Shown: positions 1 to 29,731, counted from the stretch's first letter. The stretch is DNA of 34,726 bases from Candidatus Binatia bacterium (GCA_025057295.1 JANWXO010000006.1:1-34726); one strand, 5' to 3'. A program made the numbers and translations. The notes: generated by a model not told the origin, from the letters alone.

Positions 1-1176
1 CGTTTACCGTTGAATTTGGGCATTGTGCTCGATCGCAGTGGGTCGATGTACGACGAAAAACGCCTCGACTATGTGATCGAAGCAGTAAAATATCTGGTTC
101 AGCACCTCGGTCCTGAGGATCGGGCTGCTATTGTAGCGTTCGCCGATAAAGCTGCGGTTGTGGCGACTGCCGATCAACTCCTGCAGGATAAAGGGCGTGT
201 GTTGCGTGCCATTGATGACCTCGATCTTTTAGAGATCGGCGGTGGAACGCAAATGGCGCTGGGAATGGAGGCTGCACTGGCAGAGGTAGAAAAAAATTAC
301 TCGCCAAACCGCTTGAACCGCCTCTTGCTCCTCACTGATGGGCAGACCTACGAGGAGCGCAGATGCTTGGACTTGGCTCGCCACCATCGTGACCGCATAT
401 CCTGTAGCACCCTAGGGGTCGGGATCGAGTTTAACGAAAAGCTGCTCATGGAAATGGCAGAAGCGAGCGGGGCGAATTACCACTTCATTGGCGACCCAGC
501 CTCGATTCCGGATATCTTCTCCCGTGAGCTTGCAGGGCTGCGCAATATAGCGCTGACGAATGCGCGCCTCGAGGTACGGCTCAGCGCAGGGGTGCAGGTG
601 AAGGAGGTTTTTCGCGCCAGCCCGCAAATCTATGCGGTGAAAGAGGCAACGCCAGATGCCCAGCGTGCCTTGACCGTGCCTCTCGGGGATTTGGAGGCGG
701 GAGTGCCGAGCGCGGCTCTGCTCGTTTTAGTTTTACCCCCGCGCAAGCCAGGGCGGGTCCGTATTGCGCAGGCGACGCTTTGCTACGACACCCCGGAGGT
801 GAAGGGGCTGCGCGAAAATACCGAGGCGGTCGTCGAGTACACCCTTGACCGCACAATGGTGGGGAAGGCCAATGCGTACGTTATGAACCTTGTTGATCAG
901 GTGAGCATCGCCAAGCTGCAGAGTCAGGCCGAGGCTGCTCTGGCAGCAGGGAATGTCGAGCGAGCGACCCGCTTGCTTGGCAACGCTATTGCTGGCACCC
1001 AGCGCTTGGGGAATACCAAAGCCACGCAAGCCCTCGTGTCCCTGCAAAACGAGGTCAAGAAGACACAAAGCTTGGCTGGGCGGGCAGCGAAAACCCAACT
1101 GCTCACCGCGCAAGCCACGTTACGCAAAACGCAACTGCTCGATCCTGCGAGCGTCAGGGCTACGTTGCAGGAGTAA
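1..1176 (+). CDS. VWA (von Willebrand A) domain protein, 5'-truncated by window edge
   Basis: Frame is open from base 1 (RLPLNLGIVLDRSGSM...); MIDAS motif DRSGS; DGQTYEE; C-terminal KTQ-rich tail. The ORF-track start at 10 (TTG) is probably internal. Confidence 0.85.
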   Translation, partial: RLPLNLGIVLDRSGSMYDEKRLDYVIEAVKYLVQHLGPEDRAAIVAFADKAAVVATADQLLQDKGRVLRAIDDLDLLEIGGGTQMALGMEAALAEVEKNYSPNRLNRLLLLTDGQTYEERRCLDLARHHRDRISCSTLGVGIEFNEKLLMEMAEASGANYHFIGDPASIPDIFSRELAGLRNIALTNARLEVRLSAGVQVKEVFRASPQIYAVKEATPDAQRALTVPLGDLEAGVPSAALLVLVLPPRKPGRVRIAQATLCYDTPEVKGLRENTEAVVEYTLDRTMVGKANAYVMNLVDQVSIAKLQSQAEAALAAGNVERATRLLGNAIAGTQRLGNTKATQALVSLQNEVKKTQSLAGRAAKTQLLTAQATLRKTQLLDPASVRATLQE

Positions 1177-1224: not shown

Positions 1225-1800
1225 ATGATCCGCTGTGCAGAGTGCGGCCACGAGAATATGGATGGTCTTGAATATTGTGATGCTTGTGGCGCAAAACTCT
1301 CCCTCTCGGCTGCTCCGACGGTCACGCCTGCGCCGGCGACATCTGAGAGTGCGGGGGCACCTGAACCGCCTCCGACCACTGCTGAAAGTGAAAGTGCTGC
1401 CCCACCAGCTCCTCAACCGGAAGCAGCGCCGGTGAGCGCTCCTGTGCAACCGTCCCCGGCCCCTGCAGCGATTCAAACCGCCAAGCTCATAATCGTCCGC
1501 GGTGGGACGGTAGGCAAGGTCTTTCCCTTACAAGTGGGGGATAATCTGATCGGTCGCTGGGACCCGGATTCAGGCGCCTTCCCCGACGTGGATCTGGAAG
1601 CGGATGATCCTGAGGCGCGCATCTCGCGCAAGCACGCGATCATTCGTGTCAGCGATAAAGTCGAGATCGAGGACATCGGGAGCCTGAACGGCACGTTTGT
1701 CAATCGTGGTCCTCGCCTTGAGCCCGGAACTCCTGTGACTCTCAAAGATGGCGATGAGATCATCGTCGGCAAAACCTTCTTTAAGCTCTCTTTGGTCTGA
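1225..1800 (+). CDS. Zinc-ribbon + FHA domain protein
   Basis: N-terminal CAEC..CDAC zinc ribbon, Pro/Ala-rich linker, FHA core IGRWDPDSG...ISRKHAII...SLNGTFVN; RBS AAGGAGG upstream. Confidence 0.9.
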   Translation: MIRCAECGHENMDGLEYCDACGAKLSLSAAPTVTPAPATSESAGAPEPPPTTAESESAAPPAPQPEAAPVSAPVQPSPAPAAIQTAKLIIVRGGTVGKVFPLQVGDNLIGRWDPDSGAFPDVDLEADDPEARISRKHAIIRVSDKVEIEDIGSLNGTFVNRGPRLEPGTPVTLKDGDEIIVGKTFFKLSLV

Positions 1801-1836: not shown

Positions 1837-3510
1837 ATGAATGGTGAGTTGTTCTGCGACCATTCTCCTGCCAGAGAGGATACTCCGGTCATCTGCCCGG
1901 AGTGCGCTTCCGAGAATCCGGCCGAGGACACCTACTGTGTTGTCTGCGGTGCGGCATTGGCTGGTGATACTACCACACTCGTTCCGCTGGCGCTGGGAAC
2001 GGTCCTTGCCGAGCGCTATGTGATCGAATCGGTGCACTCCTATGGCAGCGAGAACCGCTATGTAGGCCGACGGTGCGATGGGACCTCTGGGCGGGTGCTC
2101 GTACGCGAGCGCGAACGCGAGGAGGCTGCCCTGTGGCGTGCGCTCGTGACACGCGCGGCTAGCCTCGCGCATCCGGCTATTGTGGTGCCCGAGGACTATT
2201 TCGAGCTCGCCGAGCGCGGTTATCTCGTCTGTCCGGAAGTGCCAGGGATCCGTTTGACCGAGCGGATAGGACGGACCACCGAACGTGAGGCGGTGGCCTG
2301 GGGGGTACAACTCTGTCAGCTGCTGGGCTTTCTGCACCGGCACGAGCTGCTCTGTCTTGAGTTCCCGCCAGAGTGGCTGGTGCTGAGTCGCGAGGGACGT
2401 CTCTGCTTGACGCACCTCGACGTGTTGACCGGAAAGAGTTCAGCGCCCGAAGAGAGGATCCTCACCGATGGCTACGCTGCCCCCGAGACGTATAAAGCCA
2501 CGGCTGTCGACGAGCGGTCCGAGGTCTTTGCCGTAGCGGCTCTCTTGTACACCCTGCTGGTCGGTAAACGTTTGCCGGTGGAGGGGTGGGCAGTGCAGCC
2601 TGAGCTGCCGGTTTTCTACCCAGACAAGGTGCTTTCTCCACGCCTGGAACGGGTCCTGCGCAAGGCGTTAGCGTACGATCCGCAGGAACGTTACGAGAGC
2701 GTCGAGGTGTTGAAGAAAACCCTGCTGGCCGTCAACCAGCATGTGCGCGTGCGCTCGGCCTGGCTCAGTGACGTTGGGGAAAAGCGCGACCATAACGAAG
2801 ACGCGGTGTTGCTCAAGGAGTCGGTGCGGAGCACGGTTGCTGGGGCTGAATTCGTCGGACTCTACATCGTCTCTGATGGTATGGGTGGAGCCGCAGCAGG
2901 AGAGGTGGCGAGTGCGTTAGCAGTACAAACTATTGCTGAGCACGTTGAGCAGAGGTTCCCTCATGGATACGGGATGAGCGACGGAGAGCGGGAAGCATGT
3001 CTGCGCGAGGCGATCGTAGCCGCCAACGCGGCGATCTACGAATACGGCAAGGAGCATCGCGAATCTGCGGGCTTAGGGGCGACAGTGGTAGCTGCTCTGA
3101 TCTGCGGATCTCGGTGCTCCCTTGCCTGGGTTGGTGATAGTCGGGCGTATCTGTGGGAGCGTGGACACTTGCAGCAGCTGTCGCGCGATCATTCCCTCGT
3201 TGCCCGCTTGGTCGAGATCGGCCAAATCAGTCCGGCGGAGGCGCGGACCCATGAGCACCGGCATCTCCTCATTCGGTCTTTGGGCAGTAAGGAACACGTC
3301 GTGGTGGACTCCTTGAGCCATCCTCTTGCGCGTGGAACGAAACTGTTGCTCTGTAGCGATGGCTTGACCACCCATGTGGAGGACCAGGTTCTCAGCGATA
3401 TTCTCAGTCGTCATCGTGATCCCGGCGACGCAGCGTTAGAGTTGGTCGTGGCGGCAAATGCAGGGGGAGGGAGCGATAACATTTCTGTGGTAGTGGTCTT
3501 TTACGAGTAA
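1837..3510 (+). CDS. Zinc-ribbon / kinase-like (pseudokinase) / PP2C-type phosphatase fusion
   Basis: CPEC..CVVC ribbon; kinase-fold-like middle (GYAAPE, DERSEVFAVAALLYTLLVG) lacking catalytic motifs; PP2C motifs HNED, SDGMGG, GDSRAYLW, CSDGL, GGSDNISVVVV. Confidence 0.88.
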   Translation: MNGELFCDHSPAREDTPVICPECASENPAEDTYCVVCGAALAGDTTTLVPLALGTVLAERYVIESVHSYGSENRYVGRRCDGTSGRVLVREREREEAALWRALVTRAASLAHPAIVVPEDYFELAERGYLVCPEVPGIRLTERIGRTTEREAVAWGVQLCQLLGFLHRHELLCLEFPPEWLVLSREGRLCLTHLDVLTGKSSAPEERILTDGYAAPETYKATAVDERSEVFAVAALLYTLLVGKRLPVEGWAVQPELPVFYPDKVLSPRLERVLRKALAYDPQERYESVEVLKKTLLAVNQHVRVRSAWLSDVGEKRDHNEDAVLLKESVRSTVAGAEFVGLYIVSDGMGGAAAGEVASALAVQTIAEHVEQRFPHGYGMSDGEREACLREAIVAANAAIYEYGKEHRESAGLGATVVAALICGSRCSLAWVGDSRAYLWERGHLQQLSRDHSLVARLVEIGQISPAEARTHEHRHLLIRSLGSKEHVVVDSLSHPLARGTKLLLCSDGLTTHVEDQVLSDILSRHRDPGDAALELVVAANAGGGSDNISVVVVFYE

Positions 3511-3524
3511 CGCGGAGCCCGGCT

Positions 3525-5918
3525 ATGCCCCGCAATGAGAATGGACAACTTGAGCCTGGCACCTTGCTTGCCGGGCGATATCGCATCGAACGGTTTCTCG
3601 CCGGCGGCGGCATGGGTCTCGTGTACCTCGCGCATGACCTGCGACTGGCAGACCGTCGCTGTGCCATCAAGGAAATTTTTGATCGCTTTACCAATACGGA
3701 GGAGCGTGCGCGGGCGATCGAATATTTTCACCGCGAGGCAGACACCCTCGCGCAACTCAAACACCCTTCGATTCCCGCCATTTTTGATCGCTTTGGGGAA
3801 GGCAATTGTCACTACCTCGTCATGGAGTTTGTCGAGGGCACGAACCTCGAAGAGGAGATCGCGGCCCAGGGAGGTGCGCTGGCGGAAGGGCGGGTCATCG
3901 ACATTGCTCGTGAACTCTGCGACGTGCTTGCCTATCTGCACAGTTTCCGCCCGCCGATCATCTATCGGGACATGAAGCCGGGGAATGTGATCCTCACCCC
4001 CAGCGGTCGGGTCGTGCTCATTGACTTTGGTATCGCACGGATCTTCTCGCCGCAAGGCAAAGCAACATTAATCGGTACTCCCGGCTTTGCGCCCCCCGAG
4101 CAGTATAGTGGAACGGTCGATGAGCGCTCCGACATCTACAGCCTGGCGGCCACGTTGCACTATTTGCTCACCGGTCGTGATCCCGAAAAGAACCCTCCGT
4201 TTTCGTTCCCTCCCGTGCATGCTCTCAAACCTGATGCGTCGCCGTTTTTGGCCGGGGCGATTGACAAGGCCTTGTCCTACAAGATGGAGGAACGGCCGCC
4301 GAGCGCTACCGCCTTTAAGGAAATGCTCCTGTATGGGCGGGGGTTGGATGGAGCACGGGCGCAGGCTGCGGCGTCGAAAGCGGCAACCCAGCCTCTGGAA
4401 CCCTTAGCAGTGCCGACGCTCGTGGCTCCAGCCCCACAGCGGCGCCGGAAAAGACGTTGGGCACGTGCGGTACTCCTCTTGGGCCTGGTCGTTGGGAGTG
4501 TCTATGGGGTATATACCCATCCCCAGCTGGTCGACCCTGAATATTTGATGCGGATCGGAGAACGTATCCCGTGGCAGCGTCTCGAGGCGGTCCTCCCGGA
4601 ATGGGGGCGGACGCGGTTACGCACATTTGTGGAGAACCTGCCGTGGGAGCGTGAGAAGCGCTTGCGAGCGCTCCGGGCAGACCCTGTCGCAGTCGTCTCG
4701 TTGAAGATCCTGCATACCTCGCGCGATGGCACTCCGCTCCCTCAGCAGAAGGCCTCCTATAGAGAGGACGAGGTGCAATATCTCACCTGGGAAGCAGTGC
4801 TCAAAAATCGCCTTGCTGGTCTCGAAGGGGCAAAGTATGAGCTCGAAGGGCGGTTCTTCGATCCCGAAGGAGGGGTAGCGGGCAGGAGCGCTGCTGGACG
4901 CTTTGTGCGCCCAGAGGAGGAACAGGTCGAACTGCGAGGGATTACCTTGCTCGAAGGGTTGAAAGAGCGGGCGAAAGGGGATTACCAGTTCGAACTCTAC
5001 CTTGGGGAACGGAAATTGGCCAGTCACACGGTGAGGATCGAGCCAACGCCAAAGGTAGAAGTCAAGCAAGAGCGACAGCCGGCAGAAGTGAAAGTTGCGG
5101 ACGCTCACCCTCCTGTTACTATTCCGGTACCCTCCCCCCCGCCGGCAGCTGTAGAGGCAGAGCGGAAGCGGCTCGCTGAGGAGGCGAAACGCGTTGCGCT
5201 GATTCAGGAGCGGAGCAAGAAGCCGCTCGAACTCAAAACGATTCGCTTCGTCAATACCGACAAGCAGGGCAAACGGTTGTCTCAGCCGACCGACAGATTT
5301 AGCGCTTCAGAGGTGCGTTTTGTGGCTTGGGAGGCGGTCTTTCGCAATCGTTTATACGAGCTCACTCCTTCGTATCACCGGGTTGAGGCCACGTATTACG
5401 GACCGAATGGCCAACCGCTCGGGACTGTGCAGGATGGCAAGGAGGTCCCCGCAAACAGTGCCGAGGCGACCTTCACCGGCCGCATCGGCAATACCAAAGG
5501 CGGAGCGTTTGTCCCTGGTACCTACCGCGTCGATTTCTACGTCAACGGTTGGCCGTTATCGTCTAAAGAGTTTGTCGTGGAAGACGACCGCGATGTGGGA
5601 CGCCTGTTGCGCCATCACGTTGGCAGTATGCTCGGCCTTGTGCCTGGACGCGAGGTCCCTCTGGAGATCACCTTCCGTCCCCGTGGGGACGGAAGCCTGC
5701 AAGGAGACTTGATCATCCACGAACCGGGGTATGGAGTGGCTCCGCTCGAAGGGCAGACGGATGGGTTCCGTATTGAGTTTCGCAGTCCTATCGGCCGGGA
5801 GACGTACCATTTTCAGGGATGGCGTGAAGAGGGCCGCCTGATCGGGACCTATACGGTCTCCCCCTCCGGGGCTGGTGGACGGTGGTCTGTACGGATTGGT
5901 GGCGGATCTGCGTCATAA
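3525..5918 (+). CDS. Membrane-anchored Ser/Thr protein kinase with duplicated extracytoplasmic domains
   Basis: GRYRIERFLAGGGMGLVYLA, AIKEIF, YRDMKPGNVIL, IDFGIA, APPEQY, DERSDIYSLAATLHYLLTG; one TM segment (RAVLLLGLVVGSVYGVY); repeated WEAV(L/F)(K/R)NRL ectodomain. Confidence 0.92.
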   Translation: MPRNENGQLEPGTLLAGRYRIERFLAGGGMGLVYLAHDLRLADRRCAIKEIFDRFTNTEERARAIEYFHREADTLAQLKHPSIPAIFDRFGEGNCHYLVMEFVEGTNLEEEIAAQGGALAEGRVIDIARELCDVLAYLHSFRPPIIYRDMKPGNVILTPSGRVVLIDFGIARIFSPQGKATLIGTPGFAPPEQYSGTVDERSDIYSLAATLHYLLTGRDPEKNPPFSFPPVHALKPDASPFLAGAIDKALSYKMEERPPSATAFKEMLLYGRGLDGARAQAAASKAATQPLEPLAVPTLVAPAPQRRRKRRWARAVLLLGLVVGSVYGVYTHPQLVDPEYLMRIGERIPWQRLEAVLPEWGRTRLRTFVENLPWEREKRLRALRADPVAVVSLKILHTSRDGTPLPQQKASYREDEVQYLTWEAVLKNRLAGLEGAKYELEGRFFDPEGGVAGRSAAGRFVRPEEEQVELRGITLLEGLKERAKGDYQFELYLGERKLASHTVRIEPTPKVEVKQERQPAEVKVADAHPPVTIPVPSPPPAAVEAERKRLAEEAKRVALIQERSKKPLELKTIRFVNTDKQGKRLSQPTDRFSASEVRFVAWEAVFRNRLYELTPSYHRVEATYYGPNGQPLGTVQDGKEVPANSAEATFTGRIGNTKGGAFVPGTYRVDFYVNGWPLSSKEFVVEDDRDVGRLLRHHVGSMLGLVPGREVPLEITFRPRGDGSLQGDLIIHEPGYGVAPLEGQTDGFRIEFRSPIGRETYHFQGWREEGRLIGTYTVSPSGAGGRWSVRIGGGSAS

Positions 5919-5936: not shown

Positions 5937-6809
5937 ATGGAACTCTCGCGTGAGCGACTGGTGCTCTTCGCTGGAGCGGGTCTGCTGGGCGGGATCGCTG
6001 GATGGGCAGCTGCGGATCCCTTGGCAGCTGTGGGGAATGTCTATCTCCGTGCCCTCCTCCTCGGTGCTGTGATTGGTATTTTTGTCGGCGTCTTTATCAG
6101 TGCCATTGAGGGGCTGAGTGTCGGCCACAGAAATCAGACTTGGGAGGGCATCAAGCTGGGTTCGCTGGCTGGGTTTCTTGGTGGGGCGGGTGGACTGTGC
6201 CTGGGCGAGTTGGCATTTGGCATGTTTGGTGGTTTAGGGGGGAGGATTCTGGGCTGGAGCATCTTCGGGCTTGCTGTCGGATTGGGAGCGGGGTGGGTTG
6301 GGCGCTCGCCTGCGCGGCTGCGCAACGGCAGCCTCGGGGGTTGCTTGGGCGGGGCGATCGGCGGTGCCCTCTATCAGAGCGTCACCGCCTTATTCCCTCA
6401 AACCGCCGGACGTGGTGTCGCTCTGGCGTTGCTCGGCGCGGCGATTGGCCTGGGTATCGGGTTCGTCAGCGAGGTGCTCAAGCGAGGCTGGTTTATGGTG
6501 ATCCGCTCGCAAAGCCGCAACGCACGGGAGGGAAAAGAGTACCCCTTGGTCAAAGCGAAGACGACGATCGGGCGCGCTGAAGAGAGCGATGTCGGTTTGT
6601 TCGGTGATCAGTCGGTTGCCAACCTGCATGCGGTTGTAGAACGGCAGAAAGGAAAATTTATCCTTTTGCGGGGCGAGGGGCTCGTGCGGGTCAACCACGT
6701 CCCTGTGACACAACCGGTCCAACTCAAGAACGGCGACCGCGTCGAGATCGGTGGGACCCTGTTGCTCTTCCGCGAACGGGCCGGGAAGGGCTCATACAGA
6801 ACCTCATAG
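5937..6809 (+). CDS. Multi-TM glycine-rich membrane protein with C-terminal (degenerate) FHA domain
   Basis: Gly-rich hydrophobic helices over residues ~1-190, then TTIGRAEESDVGLFG...NGDRVEIGGTLLLF FHA-like fold. Confidence 0.8.
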   Translation: MELSRERLVLFAGAGLLGGIAGWAAADPLAAVGNVYLRALLLGAVIGIFVGVFISAIEGLSVGHRNQTWEGIKLGSLAGFLGGAGGLCLGELAFGMFGGLGGRILGWSIFGLAVGLGAGWVGRSPARLRNGSLGGCLGGAIGGALYQSVTALFPQTAGRGVALALLGAAIGLGIGFVSEVLKRGWFMVIRSQSRNAREGKEYPLVKAKTTIGRAEESDVGLFGDQSVANLHAVVERQKGKFILLRGEGLVRVNHVPVTQPVQLKNGDRVEIGGTLLLFRERAGKGSYRTS

Positions 6810-6876
6810 TGTTCAGCGTGCTGAGCGCGTCAGGCATGCTTGTCTCATAGAGCGGAAATCTGAGGAGAGAAAAACA

Positions 6877-8454
6877 GTGCGTTGGCGATATTACCCGTCA
6901 GAACTATCCCGCGCGAAAAAGCCGGATCTATACGTATCGATCTTCGCTGCACTGCTGTGGTATGGGCTCGTTGGCTTCGGTTCCTTCTTCCTGGGACTGA
7001 CTCTGACCCGTGCAGCAGAAACGGTTGTGGTGTCGCTCACCAGTCCGCATCTGGATAATTTTGCCAATGGGGGAGCGGTGGGACTCTACTTTAGCGCCAC
7101 CGACCGGCACGGCCAGCCGGTTGCTCAGTTGAGGCCGGAGAATGTGGAGGTACTGGAGGATGGACAGAAAGTGCAGGTGGTCGATTTTCGAGGGGAGGAG
7201 CAAGGACGGCCGGTGGATATCGTGGTGGTGTTCGACATCACCGAGAGTATGGGACCCTTTATCGAAGGAATGAAGGAGGCCACGATCGACTTTGCCGACC
7301 GCCTTGTAAAAGCGAATCGTGATTATCGCCTCGGGTTGGTGACCTTTGAGGACTACGTGACGCGGGACGATACGACCTTCACGCGGAGTGCGCGCGAGTT
7401 TAAGAGCTGGGTGGGGGCGCTGCAAGCTGCAGGCGGAGGGGATATCCCGGAGAACTCCCTGGACGCGCTGGAGGTGGCCAGCCGTTTTCCCTTTCGGCCC
7501 GAAGCGCAAGCTGTCATCATTCTGATTACCGATGCGCCCAACCATTTCCGTGGCGATGGATCGGAGAAGAACAATCCCTACGGGCGGGAAGTGACGCAAC
7601 GGACGGCTGACGAGGTGCTGGAGGCCCTGCAACGGGCACGGGTGAGCGTCTACGCTGTCGCACCACCGCCGTTTGTGGCGCCCGACTTGCACAAGCTCGC
7701 GCGGGAGACGGGAGGGCGGCACTACAACATCGTCAGCGAGGGCAGACGTTTTCCAGAACTTATCGGTGAGATTGGGCGCTCGCTCGCTTCACAATACTTC
7801 CTGACCTACCTCAGCCCGCGGCCAGTCGAAGATGGCACCCGGCGAGAGATCACCCTCCGCATCACTCATCCCAACGGCGAGGGGGAGGCGCGTACCGCCT
7901 ATCAAGTCCGCGGGGTTGGTGGTGCACGCGTCGTGGCCCCAAGCGCTGTTCCCGGTGTCCCGACTTCTGATGGGCTGATTACCTACCAATGGTGGAATGT
8001 GGTTATTCCGCTCCTTGCGGGCGCCTGCCTGCTCTTGTTAGCCCGGGTCCGCCTGAGCGAGCTCCCTGCCGAGATCCGCAGTCTGGTCAACCCGCTAACC
8101 GGATGGAGTGGTGGCGCAGCAGCGGCGGTCGCGCCAGAGAAACCTGCTCCCTATGCACGCTTGATCCGCCAAAGCTCCTTCGACCAGGTGCCTCGTGAAA
8201 TCCCCTTGAGCCGGGACGAGATGGTCATTGGGCGTGGGGAGGAATGCGATGTGATTATTCCCCATGCGTCCGTTTCACGCGAGCATGCACGGGTGAAGAA
8301 ATTACGGCCCGGTTACGTGCTGTTCGATTTGCAGAGCAAAAACGGCACCTATGTAAATGGCCGACCTATCGTCGAGAACCTCCTCAAGGATGGCATGCAG
8401 GTCCGGATCGGAGAAGTGGAGTTTGTATTCTATGGTCCACAATCCCCTTCCTGA
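6877..8454 (+). CDS. VWA - TM - FHA domain protein
   Basis: ORF opens at 6751 but likely starts at GTG 6877 with upstream GAGGAGA. MIDAS-like DITES; TM VVIPLLAGACLLLLARV; FHA IGRGEECDVIIPHASVSREHARV...SKNGTYVNG. Confidence 0.88.
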   Translation: MRWRYYPSELSRAKKPDLYVSIFAALLWYGLVGFGSFFLGLTLTRAAETVVVSLTSPHLDNFANGGAVGLYFSATDRHGQPVAQLRPENVEVLEDGQKVQVVDFRGEEQGRPVDIVVVFDITESMGPFIEGMKEATIDFADRLVKANRDYRLGLVTFEDYVTRDDTTFTRSAREFKSWVGALQAAGGGDIPENSLDALEVASRFPFRPEAQAVIILITDAPNHFRGDGSEKNNPYGREVTQRTADEVLEALQRARVSVYAVAPPPFVAPDLHKLARETGGRHYNIVSEGRRFPELIGEIGRSLASQYFLTYLSPRPVEDGTRREITLRITHPNGEGEARTAYQVRGVGGARVVAPSAVPGVPTSDGLITYQWWNVVIPLLAGACLLLLARVRLSELPAEIRSLVNPLTGWSGGAAAAVAPEKPAPYARLIRQSSFDQVPREIPLSRDEMVIGRGEECDVIIPHASVSREHARVKKLRPGYVLFDLQSKNGTYVNGRPIVENLLKDGMQVRIGEVEFVFYGPQSPS

Positions 8455-9133: not shown

Positions 9134-11170
9134 TCAGCGGTATAGTTCTTCGTCTGGCAAGGGTTGATCTGGGAGGCGGATATGGGGGTACAAGGAAGGG
9201 GTACCGTGCCGACCGAGGAGGAGAAAGTCAACCGGGAGAAAGGGCACGGGGACCTCCACACCCACGTAGGCGCTGCGCTGATCGCTGCCAAACGCTACGC
9301 GCGTACCGAGCAACTCCTTCGGTAAAGTCCCGCGCACATCCACGCCAGAACCCCCGACACTCCCTGACAGGTAGGGCAGGGTACGCCAACCGTTCTGTTC
9401 GTTCTTTTCGCGCTCACTGGTCAGTGTCAGATCGGTAGCCACCGCACCTTGGGCCAGCAGAGCGAGATCGCGCTTCCCCCGCGCCGCTGCCTGTTCGTAC
9501 CCTTTTTCGCGGAACCGGAGCCAAAACCCCTCCCACGCTGCCTGTGGCACGGTGTAGATCTTTGTCCGTGGTCCGTGATCGCTCTGCAAACGTAAGGCGA
9601 GCTCTCCGCCCGGGAGCAGGGTAATGCCCTCCTCGCTCAGCTCAACATTGTTGGCATCCCCATCGAAGAGCTCGGGTTTTAACGCCAGGCCTCTAGGGCC
9701 GACAAGGTCAGGATTTTCTTGCAAGAAGGCTTTGCTCAAGCGCAGGCCCCGGTTTTCAGGGAGCTGCAGCGCGCGCAGCTGAGACGTTGCCTGTCGCGCC
9801 GCTTTGGTATTGGGATAGTGCTGCAGCAAAGTCCGCAGGTAGGATTCCTTCTGCCCGTGGTGCTGGCTCTGGTGAGCCAGCTGGAGGAGCGCTTCACCAG
9901 CTCGCTCCTGCACGCGTTCCACCTCCTCGCTTTTGCCTGCCAGCTGGTAGTACGTGATCGCCTTGTCGAGCTGCCCCTCTTTTTCGTACGCGTTTGCGAG
10001 GACTTCGTAGACGTGTGGAGCGCGCTCCTCAGGAGGAGTGGCGCGCAGGTATTTTTCGCCTTCGGCAATGACTCGTTGTCGCGAGACGGGATTGCCGGTC
10101 AGAACGTGAAACAGCTTGGCGCTAGTTTGCACCAGAGTTAATACTCCGAACGTTGCCGCACCGACAAGACCTTCGGTCGCGACCTGGGTGCCGGCGACGA
10201 TGAAATTGTCTTTGACGAAGCCACTGCCTGGCAGAATATACTTGAGAGTTTCCTTGTCGTGTTCCCACTGTGCTGCACGCAGGTTGGCAAGTGGGTCTTG
10301 GGGAGGAGGAGTGGCCTCTTTTTGCCGGACACTGGCCTCGACGCGGGCCAGCCCAGCACGAGCCGCGGGGGATGTTTCGTCGATCAAGAGCGCCAGGTGG
10401 TAATGAAAATTCGCGCTCCAATAATCCTGTTGTTGGAGCGCGGCCTCCGCACGGGCAAGCTCGGTCTCCAAGAGGGCGCGGTTGCGTCGTGTCTCGAGAG
10501 CAGCCACCTGCTTCTGTACCTCAGCCGCGCGAGGGTGTGCAGGGACACGACGCAGAAATTCCTTATAGAGAACAAGCGCCTTCCGTTCACGTGGGCTCGG
10601 GCCGTTGCTGTCGCTCCATTCGGAAAAGATCCCTTGTGTTGCCTCCGGGCGTGGACCGCGCGGGGTACCGAAAAGCAGGCTGCCAACGTCAAAGGTCGCC
10701 AACAGCCAGTTAAACTGCCGACCGAGACGGGTACGCTTGGCATCGGCAAGCAAGCGGTCGGCTTCTGCCAACAGCTCCTCTGGCGTCGCGTTCAATAGCT
10801 CCGTCTCTAATGGGTCTTGTGCTGCCCGCGCCTGCGGCAGGAGCGCCCGCACATGAGGCGTGACCCCGGTCTCTGGCTCTCCTCGGGCGGTCAGGGTGGC
10901 ATCGTATTGCGACAGTTCCTGCACCTGTCTTTCTACTGCCGCAAAGTTTTGCAGATATGCATCGGTAATCGCATGAGCGACTTTCTTCCCCACCGCGTCC
11001 GGGAAGTAGCGGTCCGGCGGCTGTGGCGCGGTAAAGGGGGTGTAGGTAGGCAGGAAGTCGTTCAACGTGTGGGCCAGTGGGTCCGCAAACTCCTGGGCCG
11101 TAACCGGGGCGGTTGCCCACGAAAAGAGAAAGAGGCAAGGCAGAAGATATAGGAGGTTTGTCTTTCTCAT
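9134..11170 (-). CDS. Exported protein, TPR-like, function unknown
   Basis: Signal peptide MRKTNLLYLLPCLFLFSWATAPVTAQ with RBS AAAAGGA before ATG 11170; helical TPR-like repeats (YEVLANAYEKEGQLDKAITYYQLAGKSEE). Confidence 0.75.
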   Translation of the reverse strand: MRKTNLLYLLPCLFLFSWATAPVTAQEFADPLAHTLNDFLPTYTPFTAPQPPDRYFPDAVGKKVAHAITDAYLQNFAAVERQVQELSQYDATLTARGEPETGVTPHVRALLPQARAAQDPLETELLNATPEELLAEADRLLADAKRTRLGRQFNWLLATFDVGSLLFGTPRGPRPEATQGIFSEWSDSNGPSPRERKALVLYKEFLRRVPAHPRAAEVQKQVAALETRRNRALLETELARAEAALQQQDYWSANFHYHLALLIDETSPAARAGLARVEASVRQKEATPPPQDPLANLRAAQWEHDKETLKYILPGSGFVKDNFIVAGTQVATEGLVGAATFGVLTLVQTSAKLFHVLTGNPVSRQRVIAEGEKYLRATPPEERAPHVYEVLANAYEKEGQLDKAITYYQLAGKSEEVERVQERAGEALLQLAHQSQHHGQKESYLRTLLQHYPNTKAARQATSQLRALQLPENRGLRLSKAFLQENPDLVGPRGLALKPELFDGDANNVELSEEGITLLPGGELALRLQSDHGPRTKIYTVPQAAWEGFWLRFREKGYEQAAARGKRDLALLAQGAVATDLTLTSEREKNEQNGWRTLPYLSGSVGGSGVDVRGTLPKELLGTRVAFGSDQRSAYVGVEVPVPFLPVDFLLLGRHGTPSLYPHIRLPDQPLPDEELYR

Positions 11171-11207
11171 AGAGACACATCCTTTTGAGCTCTCGAGCAC
11201 TGCCACT

Positions 11208-12326
11208 TTAACGGCTTAACCGTCCAATTCTCGCCATGTAGGCCTGCAACGCTTCCAGTTTGCCCCGTGCCTCGTGCTTTTCCAGAGTTCCCTCTTCCTG
11301 AGCAACGACGGCGTAGAGGCGCAACGCTGCGCGGCCAAGTTCCTCAAACGTCAAGGGGTCGAACTGTAGACTCTGCGGATCGTGCTGGGCGACGTATTCC
11401 CGTGCCAGGGTGAAGTAGAAATCCCCGAACTGGATTTGATAGCGGGGACGATTCTTGCTTTCCTGGTGCTTGGTGATCAATTGGCTGTAGGCGAGCACGA
11501 CACTTTCATTGCCGTCTTCGAGGCGGTGGCGGTTGAGTTCGAGGAAGGCGACTTTCGCATAATCTACTCGTTCTTCCTCTTCCCGCGCCAGGATCTCGTA
11601 GGGAGTCCCGTCGTATTGGTGCTGTAGTTCCTGCCACGCTGCGATTTGCTGGTCGAGAGCTTGCAGATAGGTCACCGGGGTCGGTGCGTCGATTGGGGTT
11701 TGTTTGAGAGCCTGAAAGCGGCTGAGCGCTTCTAGGGCTGTGGCTGCTTGTCGAGATAAGCCGTTCTGACTCTGGGAGACGAGACGGTAGTGCTCCATTG
11801 CCTGCTCGTAATTGCGTAACTTTTCATACGCCTGCCCACGCACGAAGGCGAGCAGGAACGGATCGCCTTGAGGGTGGGCTGTTTCGTACTCCTGTAAGCG
11901 AAGCAACGTGGCTTTGTACAGGTTCATGCCGGTCCCATCGTGCGGTGCAGGAAAACGATAGGTGTCGCGACTGGCGGCACGCTGCAGCACGGCGGCCAGC
12001 TGCTGAAGATCGACTGCGGCGTTCTGTGGGGGCGGGGAGGAGAAATCGGTCGTCTTGCGAGTAGGGGGAGGAGCCGAGATGCCAGAAGTCGGAGCAGTGC
12101 TCCTCGACGTGGACGGTGGAGGTGATGGTGCCGCGGAGGAAGAAGTCTCTCCCCGCCAGCGTGTCCCTGCACAGCTAGCGAGCACGACGACGGTCGTCAC
12201 GCTCAAGAACACAACCCTAGCTGCTGGGGGAAGTCTTCTTGTTCCGCAAAACCAGCACATGCGTGATCGATCGGAAGGTATCGCTTCCTCACACGCCCCA
12301 AGCATCGACCACCCTGACGCGCTCAA
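11208..12326 (-). CDS. Probable lipoprotein, TPR-like, function unknown
   Basis: Lipobox-like VLASC; repeated helical sequence (AFVRGQAYEKLRNYEQAMEHYRLV). Start may be ATG at 12260. Confidence 0.7.
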   Translation of the reverse strand: MSASGWSMLGACEEAIPSDRSRMCWFCGTRRLPPAARVVFLSVTTVVVLASCAGTRWRGETSSSAAPSPPPSTSRSTAPTSGISAPPPTRKTTDFSSPPPQNAAVDLQQLAAVLQRAASRDTYRFPAPHDGTGMNLYKATLLRLQEYETAHPQGDPFLLAFVRGQAYEKLRNYEQAMEHYRLVSQSQNGLSRQAATALEALSRFQALKQTPIDAPTPVTYLQALDQQIAAWQELQHQYDGTPYEILAREEEERVDYAKVAFLELNRHRLEDGNESVVLAYSQLITKHQESKNRPRYQIQFGDFYFTLAREYVAQHDPQSLQFDPLTFEELGRAALRLYAVVAQEEGTLEKHEARGKLEALQAYMARIGRLSR

Positions 12327-28170: not shown

Positions 28171-28672
28171 TCAGGTTGCTGTGTTACAGAGCGGAGTCTA
28201 CCACTTCATGGTGTTACGCCGTCCACTTGCGATATTCCCTCTATTGCTCCCTCCTGTTGATAGATTGCATAGCTTGCCTAGGGTTAGCCAGGTTCGATCC
28301 TACGTCGAATTTGCAAAACTTTTGCACCTTAATCACGTATGCACACGAAACCATCCCGACACAAACAAGTTCAGTTGTGAAAGTTGAGGGGGACGAATAA
28401 TACACAAATGAATTCGTTATTTGTCAAGCCCGGTCGTGATCGCAAGCCAGCTTCTACCGAACCTATGGACAGCTGCGGTCCACGCCGGTCTGGACGCGGT
28501 GGCAGTACTGATGAAATGTCGGTCCACTCCCTGGAGCACCCCAAAAAATGGCTGCGGCGGAGCTTCCTTACCATATCGGATGACCCTGTGTCCGAACGGG
28601 CAGGACTGGAAGACGGCGAAGATCGGCGCAACAATGGCAATCTATTTCCTGGTAGGGAGGACGGCTGCACCT

Positions 28673-29731
28673 ATGGGATTTCGCTTCTTTCGGCGGGTGA
28701 AGCTGGCGCCGGGGATCACCCTGAACCTCAGTAAGTCGGGAGGATCTTTGTCCTTCGGACCGCGCGGTGCAAAACTCACCATCGGTCCACGCGGACAGCG
28801 CGCGACGGTGGGAATTCCCGGAACCGGGATCTTCTACACCACCACGTTCGGGAAAAATCGGAGACAGAAAGCACCCGAGGAGCAGCGTACGACCCCAACG
28901 GTCCGTCCGGCGGATCGCCTCACCTTGGGCTTTTTCAAGCGTCTCATTACGCCGGATGATCACGAGGCGCTGATCGACGGCTGGCGTGAGCTGACGCTGG
29001 GCCGCGAGGAGAAAGCGCTGGATCATCTGCGCGACGCGGCCCATCTCGCCGATGGCGCTTTTCTCGTGGGGATTTTGGCGCTCAAGCGTGGCGATTTGTC
29101 CCAGGCGGCTGCACACCTCCAAAACGCGGTCCAGCGCGCGGACGAACTCGGACAGCTTTTTGCCCGCTATGGGATCGCTGCGACCGTGAGTATAGAGGTG
29201 ACCCAGGAGGTGTCCGCCCATATCGGACCTGATATCCGCGGGGTCCTGTTGGCTCTAGCTGAAACTTATCAAGCGCAAGGGCAGCTCACGGAGGCCATTG
29301 CCTGTTTGACACGGTTGCGCCAGCTCGAGCCCGAGGATGTGGTCGTGAAATTGTCCCTCGCCGAGCTGTTGTGGGACGTGCGGCCTGACGACCGCGGCAC
29401 TTACGAAGAGATTCTGCAACTCGCTGAAGGGGTGACGAACGACTCGCCCATTCACGCTGCTTTGCTGCTGTATAAGGCGAAAGCCCTGCGGGCGTGTGGC
29501 CTCCGTGATGCTGCCTTGGCACTATTGGTGCAGCTGCGAACTCGCAAGAAGGATCGGTCGGATGAGCTACTGCGAGCGATCCGCTACGAACAGGCGCTGC
29601 TGTATGACGAATCAGGAGAGGAGCGGCGTGCTCGCGCCGAGTTCGAGAAATTGTACGCTGAAGCGCCGGATTACGAGGACGTAGCCCAGCGATTAGGCAT
29701 GCGTCCTACCCCTGGAGGGAGTGCAAGATGA
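28673..29731 (+). CDS. DUF4236 domain protein with TPR-like C-terminal region
   Basis: MGFRFFRRVKLAPGITLNLSKSGGSLSFGPRGAKLTIGPRGQRATVGIPGTGIFYTT is typical DUF4236; ATG 28673 has GGGAGG upstream; the longer ORF from 28421 is not supported. Confidence 0.82.
   Translation: MGFRFFRRVKLAPGITLNLSKSGGSLSFGPRGAKLTIGPRGQRATVGIPGTGIFYTTTFGKNRRQKAPEEQRTTPTVRPADRLTLGFFKRLITPDDHEALIDGWRELTLGREEKALDHLRDAAHLADGAFLVGILALKRGDLSQAAAHLQNAVQRADELGQLFARYGIAATVSIEVTQEVSAHIGPDIRGVLLALAETYQAQGQLTEAIACLTRLRQLEPEDVVVKLSLAELLWDVRPDDRGTYEEILQLAEGVTNDSPIHAALLLYKAKALRACGLRDAALALLVQLRTRKKDRSDELLRAIRYEQALLYDESGEERRARAEFEKLYAEAPDYEDVAQRLGMRPTPGGSAR

What the first reader, a model, noticed from the sequence alone, without database searches (positions are those of the whole stretch)
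1837..3510. Pseudokinase-PP2C fusion next to an active kinase
The kinase-like middle keeps fold landmarks (GYAAPE, DERSEVFAVAALLYTLLVG) but lacks the Gly-rich loop (SYGSENRYVG), the HRD catalytic loop (LLCLEFPPEWLVL instead of HRDxKPxN) and DFG (THLDVLTG). The PP2C half retains metal/catalytic motifs. The pseudokinase may be an allosteric or docking domain controlling the phosphatase towards the adjacent kinase.
Basis: partly seen in the sequence, partly recalled or inferred. Interest (0 to 1): 0.6.

Follow-up and report, generated by a model that had tools for sequence, protein, structure and literature searches.

The report
Pseudokinase-phosphatase fusion in signalling operon
This gene of an uncultured bacterium fuses a dead-looking protein kinase to a protein phosphatase that keeps its catalytic residues, next to a working-looking kinase and phospho-reader proteins; the same arrangement recurs in cyanobacteria and Deinococcus, so the dead kinase is probably a kept control or docking part and not a decayed remnant.

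Summary
The kinase domain lacks the VAIK Lys, HRD Asp and DFG Asp in the window; across 41 family members the Lys and DFG Asp are lost in all. The PP2C acidic residues are invariant. The domain is not decaying: about 50 Binatia genomes carry it, dN/dS is 0.07-0.28, and it has a single origin. It sits in a fixed operon: vWA, zinc-ribbon FHA, pseudokinase-PP2C, active kinase, FHA.

The same gene set, with a still more degenerate pseudokinase that Pfam barely sees or misses, lies on cyanobacterial and Deinococcus plasmids. The vWA partner is ArnB-like. Its C-tail carries about three KTxx[L/I/M] motifs in all three phyla, the sort of pThr site FHA domains read.

Best reading: a writer/reader/eraser switch around a vWA hub. 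The pseudokinase is a non-catalytic docking or allosteric domain, related to the operon's own kinases, that aims the phosphatase at this complex. Pseudokinase status and conservation are shown; docking and direction of control are inferred. New variant of a known kind.

The parts
1837..3510 (+). Gene of the zinc ribbon - pseudokinase - PP2C fusion, 557 aa
   Evidence: ORF; domains; conserved in ~50 Binatia genomes
1894..1959 (+). Zinc ribbon, residues 20-41, CxxC-x10-CxxC
   Evidence: PF13240 23.9 bits, just under its cut-off; four Cys invariant in 41/41
1984..2748 (+). Pseudokinase domain, residues ~50-304
   Evidence: PF00069; PknB phmmer E 4e-11; AlphaFold + Foldseek; alignment to adjacent kinase
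2041..2067 (+). Degenerate Gly-loop YGSENRYVG; E72, N73, Y75 invariant in 41/41
2098..2109 (+). beta-3 LVRE in place of VAIK-E: Lys replaced by Arg (R 36/41, A 5/41); the following Glu invariant
2353..2376 (+). Catalytic-loop CLEFPPEW in place of HRDxKPxN
2413..2421 (+). HLD in place of DFG; metal-binding Asp absent 41/41, an acid at the Gly position in 40/41
2479..2487 (+). Conserved APE (41/41)
2767..3498 (+). PP2C domain, residues 311-554; NED, DGMGG, GDSR, SDGL and G-D-N motifs invariant
   Evidence: NF033484 232.5 bits; invariance 41/41
10..1176 (+). ArnB-like vWA protein (5' end cut off by the contig edge)
   Evidence: PF00092; PDB 4FX5 E 1.5e-10 over residues 5-341, VWA2 5A8J E 1e-5
1060..1143 (+). 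vWA C-tail with three KTxxL motifs (KTQSL, KTQLL, KTQLL)
   Evidence: three motifs also in each cyanobacterial and Deinococcus vWA examined
1225..1800 (+). ArnA-like zinc ribbon + FHA protein
   Evidence: PF00498 52.7 bits; zinc ribbon 20-22.8 bits, under its cut-off; GR, SRKH and NG pThr-binding residues read from sequence
3525..5918 (+). Ser/Thr kinase with intact motifs (AIKE, YRDMKPGN, DFG); juxtamembrane ATQPLEPL
   Evidence: co-occurs with the fusion
5937..6809 (+). Hydrophobic N-terminal region plus C-terminal FHA protein of the operon
   Evidence: PF00498 35.7 bits; synteny
6751..8454 (+). vWA-FHA protein, found next to the operon in family f1 (true start uncertain)
   Evidence: PF00498, PF00092, TIGR03436; synteny

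Best explanation
The gene encodes the eraser of an operon-encoded phosphothreonine switch. The adjacent kinase phosphorylates KTxx[L/I/M] sites in the C-tail of the ArnB-like vWA hub, and probably its own juxtamembrane TxxL site. The FHA proteins read them. The Stp1-type PP2C removes them. The fused pseudokinase cannot transfer phosphate by the usual mechanism. It is a kept kinase fold, related to the operon's kinases, that serves as a docking or allosteric domain and holds the PP2C in this complex, either by pairing with the active kinase or by binding its substrates. The zinc ribbon, like that of archaeal ArnA, docks on the vWA hub. Shown by sequence: domain order, loss of K and DFG-D, intact PP2C motifs, active-looking neighbour, operon, conservation, repeated motifs. 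Inferred: who phosphorylates what, docking, and the direction of control.
For: K and DFG-D are lost in 41/41 while the fold is kept (APE invariant) and PP2C motifs are invariant. dN/dS of the pseudokinase is 0.07-0.28 in 12 close pairs. In 148 Binatia genomes the fusion is in 50 and the operon kinase in 49, the few mismatches being contig breaks or an incomplete genome as far as examined. Synteny vWA / ZnR-FHA / (kinase) / fusion / kinase / FHA holds wherever the contig extends. The pseudokinases form one clade, 100/100, with the operon kinases rather than 15 other Binatia kinases, 98/93. The same operon with a degenerate kinase-like domain before PP2C is on cyanobacterial and Deinococcus plasmids; hhalign of those domains to the Binatia pseudokinase gives E 4e-14 (Deinococcus) and 2e-8 (cyanobacteria), scores 96 and 63 against at most 23 in shuffles. 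KTxx[LIM] tails: mean 2.9 in Binatia, 3.0 in the other phyla, 0.27 in shuffles. The vWA protein resembles ArnB relatives 4FX5 and 5A8J; ArnA has a zinc ribbon that binds ArnB and an FHA that binds its phosphorylated C-terminus (PMC6509490, PMC12852372). A conserved AKTx[ED]L motif sits in the f9 pseudokinase insert, 30 of 32.
Against: No interaction, ATP binding, phosphorylation or phosphatase activity is measured. The f1 fusions lack the AKTxEL motif of f9, so that site is not essential to the design. Cyanobacterial and Deinococcus fusions lack the zinc ribbon, which sits on their kinases instead, so the zinc-ribbon docking step is not universal to the phosphatase. Nothing in the data says whether the pseudokinase activates, inhibits or merely tethers the PP2C. 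The f9 lineage keeps the HRD-position Asp.
Confidence: 0.5

Rival explanations
1. Nucleotide sensor: the domain still binds ATP/ADP without Lys and DFG Asp, through the beta-3 Arg and the acid at the DFG-Gly position as proposed for DYD pseudokinases and POMK, and gates the PP2C by energy state.
For: Arg at beta-3 in 36/41 and an acid at DFG+2 in 40/41; the described DYD family has K to R, no alpha-C Glu and an Asp at that position modelled to salt-bridge the Arg (PMC12599244). The alpha-C Glu position reads Leu in the window alignment.
Against: Genus g3 has Ala at beta-3 with Asp kept, so the pair does not covary; the Gly-loop is replaced by an invariant ENxY; the catalytic-loop Asn is mostly Ser (30/41).
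Confidence: 0.25
2. Catalytically active atypical kinase, or a kinase fold with another transfer activity (AMPylation, glutamylation), making this a bifunctional writer/eraser.
For: The HRD-position Asp is kept in 33/41 and Glu in 8; SelO and SidJ show pseudokinases can have new chemistry (PMC12599244). A 2025 PP2C survey suggested kinase-PP2C proteins may have both activities (PMC12088040).
Against: No Lys, no DFG Asp in 41/41, no Gly-loop; no single catalytic residue is common to the Binatia, cyanobacterial and Deinococcus versions; an active-looking kinase is encoded next door.
Confidence: 0.08
3. Evolutionary remnant: an old kinase-phosphatase fusion whose kinase half is decaying without function.
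For: The pseudokinase half evolves faster than the PP2C half (identity to the window protein 33-56% against 47-69%) and is still more degenerate in cyanobacteria.
Against: dN/dS 0.07-0.28; 37 of 255 positions near-invariant, including the new ENxY motif; kept as an open frame in nearly all of ~50 genomes.
Confidence: 0.07
4. The phosphatase acts in a different pathway and the operon neighbourhood reflects co-regulation only, for example part of a TerY-P-like stress or defence island.
For: vWA, PP2C and zinc-ribbon kinase are the TerY-P components (PMC11090510), and the cyanobacterial and Deinococcus copies lie on plasmids.
Against: FHA genes are constant here and not part of the TerY-P definition; no restriction or Ter genes among the window genes scanned; near-universal presence in one Binatia family.
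Confidence: 0.1

Closest known systems
Archaeal ArnA-ArnB switch (Sulfolobus; zinc-ribbon FHA ArnA, vWA ArnB, kinases ArnC/ArnD, phosphatase PP2A)
   Same: vWA hub with several C-terminal threonine sites, a partner with N-terminal zinc ribbon and C-terminal FHA, reversible phosphorylation (PMC6509490, PMC12852372, PMC10470591); the window vWA protein matches ArnB-type structures 4FX5 and 5A8J; same CxxC-x10-CxxC spacing as ArnA C21/C24/C35/C38.
   Different: Here kinase and phosphatase are in the same operon, the phosphatase is PP2C and not PP2A, it carries its own zinc ribbon and a pseudokinase; no archaellum genes.
TerY-P triad (TerY vWA, PP2C, kinase with zinc ribbon)
   Same: vWA, PP2C and Ser/Thr kinase together; zinc ribbon on the kinase in the cyanobacterial and Deinococcus versions.
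   Different: FHA reader constant here; PP2C fused to a pseudokinase; zinc ribbon at the N-terminus; no Ter or restriction genes seen; PADLOC hits only generic kinase models.
DYD and other described bacterial pseudokinase families (PMC12599244)
   Same: Loss of VAIK Lys with Arg in its place, no alpha-C Glu, an acid at the third DFG position.
   Different: Fused to zinc ribbon and PP2C; not from Actinobacteria or Firmicutes; the review describes no phosphatase fusion (PP2C is not mentioned).
Kinase-PP2C fusions of Pseudomonas and D. radiodurans (2005 survey PMC1262709; 2025 survey PMC12088040)
   Same: Kinase fold and PP2C in one polypeptide.
   Different: Those were reported as kinases, with PP2C N-terminal to the kinase in Pseudomonas; here the order is kinase fold then PP2C, and the kinase fold is inactive by sequence.
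KKP kinase-kinase-phosphatase module (PfkA, PfkB, PfpC; PMC11341870)
   Same: Operon of Ser/Thr kinases, PP2C and FHA; in Binatia family f9 two active-looking kinases flank the PP2C gene.
   Different: Both KKP kinases keep HRD/DFG and carry a cold-shock or FHA domain; no vWA and no pseudokinase reported; prophage-borne toxin-antitoxin.
NCBIfam NF011149 / PRK14559 (serine/threonine phosphatase, 642 positions; over its cut-off in Synechococcus elongatus or another of the control genomes)
   Same: Its PP2C end and a second stretch match the window protein.

Membership tests
Pseudokinase (Hanks-type kinase fold lacking catalytic motifs) | Kinase fold by sequence profile and model | tested here: met
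   PF00069 40.9 bits > 31.7; hhalign to active kinases E 4e-43; AlphaFold pTM 0.67, Foldseek to Stk1/PknB
Pseudokinase (Hanks-type kinase fold lacking catalytic motifs) | Loss of VAIK Lys and DFG Asp | tested here: met
   Absent in 41/41
Pseudokinase (Hanks-type kinase fold lacking catalytic motifs) | Loss of HRD Asp | tested here: inconclusive
   Glu in 8/41 including the window; Asp at this position in 33/41
Pseudokinase (Hanks-type kinase fold lacking catalytic motifs) | No phosphotransfer activity | not testable with these tools
   needs biochemistry
DYD pseudokinase family | beta-3 Lys to Arg and Asp at third DFG position | tested here: met
   R 36/41; D 35/41, E 5/41
DYD pseudokinase family | DYD motif proper (first Asp kept) | tested here: not met
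   First position G/Q/H/S in 41/41
DYD pseudokinase family | Actinobacterial or firmicute, membrane-associated | tested here: not met
   Hosts are Binatia, Cyanobacteria, Deinococcus; membrane segments were not specifically predicted
Stp1/IreP PP2C phosphatase | Model score over the curated cut-off and acidic metal motifs | tested here: met
   NF033484 232.5 >= 230; motifs invariant
Stp1/IreP PP2C phosphatase | Phosphatase activity | not testable with these tools
   needs biochemistry
TerY-P triad | vWA + PP2C + kinase genes together | tested here: met
TerY-P triad | Zinc ribbon (or OB-fold) at the C-terminus of the kinase | tested here: not met
   Zinc ribbon on FHA and PP2C proteins in Binatia; N-terminal on the kinase in cyanobacteria and Deinococcus
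TerY-P triad | vWA of TerY type | not tested
   only Pfam vWA and ArnB-type structural relatives were seen
ArnA-ArnB module | vWA protein of the ArnB three-domain type | tested here: inconclusive
   phmmer to 4FX5 (E 1.5e-10, residues 5-341) and 5A8J (1e-5, vWA part only)
ArnA-ArnB module | Partner with N-terminal zinc ribbon and C-terminal FHA | tested here: met
   FHA PF00498 52.7 bits; zinc-ribbon hits below the Pfam cut-off but with four Cys in ArnA spacing (and sequence)
ArnA-ArnB module | FHA binds the phosphorylated vWA C-terminus | not testable with these tools
   conserved KTxx[LIM] tail motifs only
KKP module | Cold-shock-domain kinase PfkA and FHA kinase PfkB | tested here: not met
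   No CSD or FHA on the window kinase

The most novel reading that the evidence does not exclude
A widespread but unrecognised family of PP2C phosphatases carries a built-in pseudokinase that targets them to an ArnA/ArnB-like phospho-switch in bacteria. Zinc ribbons shared between reader, writer and eraser compete for the same face of the vWA hub, and the pseudokinase acts as a decoy kinase that brings the eraser wherever the writer goes.
Probability: 0.25. Interest if true: 0.75.

Novelty: new variant of a known kind. Interest (0 to 1): 0.56.

Why it matters
Bacterial pseudokinases are abundant but hardly any has a known job. Here is one with a built-in readout (the PP2C it is fused to), a candidate partner kinase and a candidate substrate with short repeated sites, in organisms that include the genetically tractable Deinococcus radiodurans and Nostoc relatives. 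It makes 'what does a bacterial pseudokinase do to its partner enzyme' directly testable. It also suggests that the archaeal ArnA-ArnB switch has a bacterial counterpart with its own kinase and phosphatase, and that the middle part of many 'PP2C domain-containing' proteins has gone unannotated.

Tried and rejected
Full-length AlphaFold model from 7 sequences: pLDDT 45, pTM 0.31, not used beyond secondary structure. The domain-only model is medium confidence, with the activation-loop and alpha-G regions below 50, so active-site geometry was not read from it. A first profile comparison of the cyanobacterial middle domain with a six-sequence kinase alignment was not significant; with fuller alignments and shuffle controls it was. 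Covariation of beta-3 Arg with the DFG-position acid was looked for by eye and is not strict. PADLOC matches (PD-T4-6, mad6) were judged generic kinase hits. A phylum-wide search of 395 genomes found no further fusion: the other high-scoring places are PP2C alone or matches that run through stop codons. Whether the cyanobacterial/Deinococcus and Binatia fusions have one origin is unresolved: cyanobacteria and Deinococcus group together, 100/98, and joining Binatia to them is neither favoured nor rejected (AU p 0.41). The tree does not settle which operon kinase gave rise to the pseudokinase (AU p 0.19 for joining it to the downstream kinase alone). Using a plasmid locus as centre for a genome search is not supported. 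Literature searches found no description of a pseudokinase-PP2C fusion or of this operon, but the library holds open-licence papers only.

Full report
WHAT IS THERE. Window 1837-3510 (+) encodes a 557-aa protein. Its parts are a zinc ribbon (residues 20-41, CxxC-x10-CxxC), a kinase-fold domain (~50-304) and a PP2C phosphatase (311-554) that passes the Stp1/IreP NCBIfam cut-off, 232.5 against 230 bits. The kinase part passes the Pfam Pkinase cut-off (40.9 against 31.7 bits) and matches M. tuberculosis PknB (E 4e-11). An AlphaFold model of the domain built from 13 sequences is medium confidence (pLDDT 68.9, pTM 0.67); all listed Foldseek matches are kinases (Stk1, Aurora, PknB; E ~1e-11, TM ~0.54).

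IS IT A PSEUDOKINASE. Against the adjacent operon kinase the register is clear: GGGMGLVY/YGSENRYV, AIKE/LVRE, Leu in place of the alpha-C Glu of HREA, YRDMKPGN/CLEFPPEW, DFG/HLD, while the APE segment is kept. In 41 family members the VAIK Lys is never present (R 36, A 5). The DFG Asp is never present (G 29, Q 6, H 3, S 3), but an acid occupies the third position in 40. The HRD Asp is Glu in 8, including the window, and Asp in 33. The catalytic-loop Asn is S 30, N 5, G 3, A 2, W 1. The positions that became fixed instead are E72-N73-x-Y75 in the Gly-loop, E91 after beta-3, and G-Y/F-x-A-P-E. The PP2C motifs NED, DGMGG, GDSR, CSDGL and G-D-N are invariant. The adjacent kinases in the same loci keep YRD-K-N and DFG.

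IS IT KEPT OR DECAYING. The fusion is present in 50 of 148 class Binatia genomes: 11 of family f1 and 39 of family f9. Two further hits in that list, G016 and G166, are PP2C only. It was not seen outside the class in a sample of 395 genomes of the phylum. Relatives with names are mostly Candidatus Binatia/Binatota MAGs. dN/dS in 12 close pairs is 0.07-0.28 for the pseudokinase and 0.07-0.22 for the PP2C. The pseudokinases form one clade (100/100) on a long stem, nearer to the operon kinases than to 15 other kinases from the class (98/93), with the exact sister unresolved. This is a single old event, then purifying selection.

THE OPERON. Where contigs extend far enough the order is constant: vWA; zinc ribbon-FHA; (f9 only: a second active-looking kinase); zinc ribbon-pseudokinase-PP2C; active-looking kinase; hydrophobic region-FHA; (f1: vWA-FHA). 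In the window all are on the + strand with short gaps. The operon kinase is found in 49 of the same 148 genomes. The mismatches are G118 (kinase only), G085 (its contig ends inside the kinase gene) and G117 (53% complete).

BEYOND BINATIA. A tblastn search of plasmids found PP2C proteins of Trichormus, Tolypothrix, Nostoc, Gloeothece and Deinococcus that align from inside the pseudokinase through the PP2C. Their neighbours are vWA, FHA and, in most, a kinase with HRDIKPDN or HRDIKPEN and DFG. Pfam names no kinase domain above cut-off in them. Profile comparison with column-shuffled controls shows that the middle domains are kinase-like: Deinococcus against the Binatia pseudokinase E 4e-14, cyanobacteria 2e-8, scores 96 and 63 against at most 23 in shuffles; both score higher to the pseudokinase than to the active kinases. 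The residues lost differ by lineage: Deinococcus keeps an Asp in TDLDP, cyanobacteria appear to keep one in FFDL, and the beta-3 Lys appears as Arg in all three (read from alignments and less certain than in Binatia). No catalytic residue is common to all. That is what a non-catalytic role predicts. Whether the fusions share one origin is open.

THE HUB. The window vWA protein matches the ArnB-type structures 4FX5 (E 1.5e-10, nearly full length) and S. acidocaldarius VWA2 5A8J. Published work shows that ArnA has an N-terminal zinc ribbon that binds unphosphorylated ArnB and an FHA that binds its phosphorylated C-terminal threonines, set by kinase ArnC and phosphatase PP2A (PMC6509490, PMC12852372). 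The window FHA protein has the same layout and the same Cys spacing. The vWA C-tail carries KTQSL, KTQLL and KTQLL in the window; 34 Binatia tails average 2.9 such [KR]Txx[LIM] motifs, seven cyanobacterial and Deinococcus tails have three each, and shuffles average 0.27. The +3 residue after pThr is the usual FHA selectivity position (general knowledge). Related TxxL sites recur between the kinase domain and the membrane segment of the operon kinase, and in f9 within the long insert of the pseudokinase N-lobe (AKTx[ED]L in 30 of 32).

HOW IT MOST LIKELY WORKS. Kinase writes, FHA reads, PP2C erases, around a vWA hub. The fused pseudokinase is a non-catalytic kinase fold that positions or gates the PP2C in that complex, most simply by pairing with the active kinase or by binding the same substrate tails. 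The zinc ribbon probably docks on the vWA protein, as in ArnA. The steps shown are anatomy, conservation, co-occurrence and motifs. Partner choice, docking and sign of control are inference. The main rival is a nucleotide sensor using the beta-3 Arg and the DFG-position acid, as modelled for DYD pseudokinases; the missing strict covariation and the altered Gly-loop weigh against it without excluding it.

KNOWN OR NEW. Kinase-PP2C tethering was reported in 2005 for Pseudomonas and D. radiodurans and counted in a 2025 PP2C survey that took it as possible dual activity. A 2025 review of bacterial pseudokinase families does not mention PP2C. TerY-P, KKP and ArnA-ArnB share parts but each fails a defining feature or could not be fully tested. 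I rate it a new variant of a known kind: known domains and a known type of switch, in a combination and with a conserved pseudokinase-phosphatase that I could not find described. The literature library is incomplete, so this rests on absence in what was searched.

Noticed in passing
L084-L109 (family f9 operons), e.g. L085:5574-7310: In f9 a second intact Ser/Thr kinase (YRDLKPGN or YRDLKPAN, DFG) lies directly upstream of the fusion gene, so two active-looking kinases flank the pseudokinase-PP2C gene; f1 lacks it.
   Followed up: partly
L084-L118 fusion proteins (f9): The f9 pseudokinase has a ~100-150-aa low-complexity insert between beta-3 and alpha-C carrying a conserved (D)PxGPxAKTx[ED]L island, a likely phosphothreonine/FHA site; f1 lacks it.
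   Followed up: partly
L119, L120, L122, L125 (cyanobacterial plasmids), L121, L124, L126 (Deinococcus plasmids): The vWA-FHA-PP2C-kinase operon is carried on plasmids; in D. wulumuqiensis (L124) it lies next to lexA and pprA of the DNA-damage response.
   Followed up: partly
L120, L121, L122, L124, L125, L126: The zinc ribbon is on the kinase in cyanobacteria and Deinococcus but on the FHA and phosphatase proteins in Binatia: the same ribbon type is found on writer, reader or eraser.
   Followed up: partly
L126:5672-6615 (D. radiodurans DRR11): The FHA gene is annotated as two pieces (hypothetical protein, then an 88-aa FHA protein); possibly a frameshift or annotation split.
   Followed up: no
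L017 / G010:C67:2872-4599 (MPMI01000029.1): The fusion reading frame is broken inside the PP2C domain in this MAG; sequencing error or pseudogene.
   Followed up: no
G000:C479:7374-9027: The same genome has a second adjacent pair of Ser/Thr kinase and PP2C on another contig (Pkinase 150 bits; PP2C 38% identical to the window one).
   Followed up: no
window 5937-6809: The FHA domain at the end of this hydrophobic protein appears to lack the usual SxxH and NG pThr-binding residues (VANLH, VNH), so it may be a degenerate FHA.
   Followed up: no
window 9134-11206 and 11208-12326 (-): Two long minus-strand ORFs (690 and 372 aa) with no Pfam match at 1e-4.
   Followed up: no
window 28421-29731: ORF with a DUF4236 domain joined to TPR repeats.
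   Followed up: no
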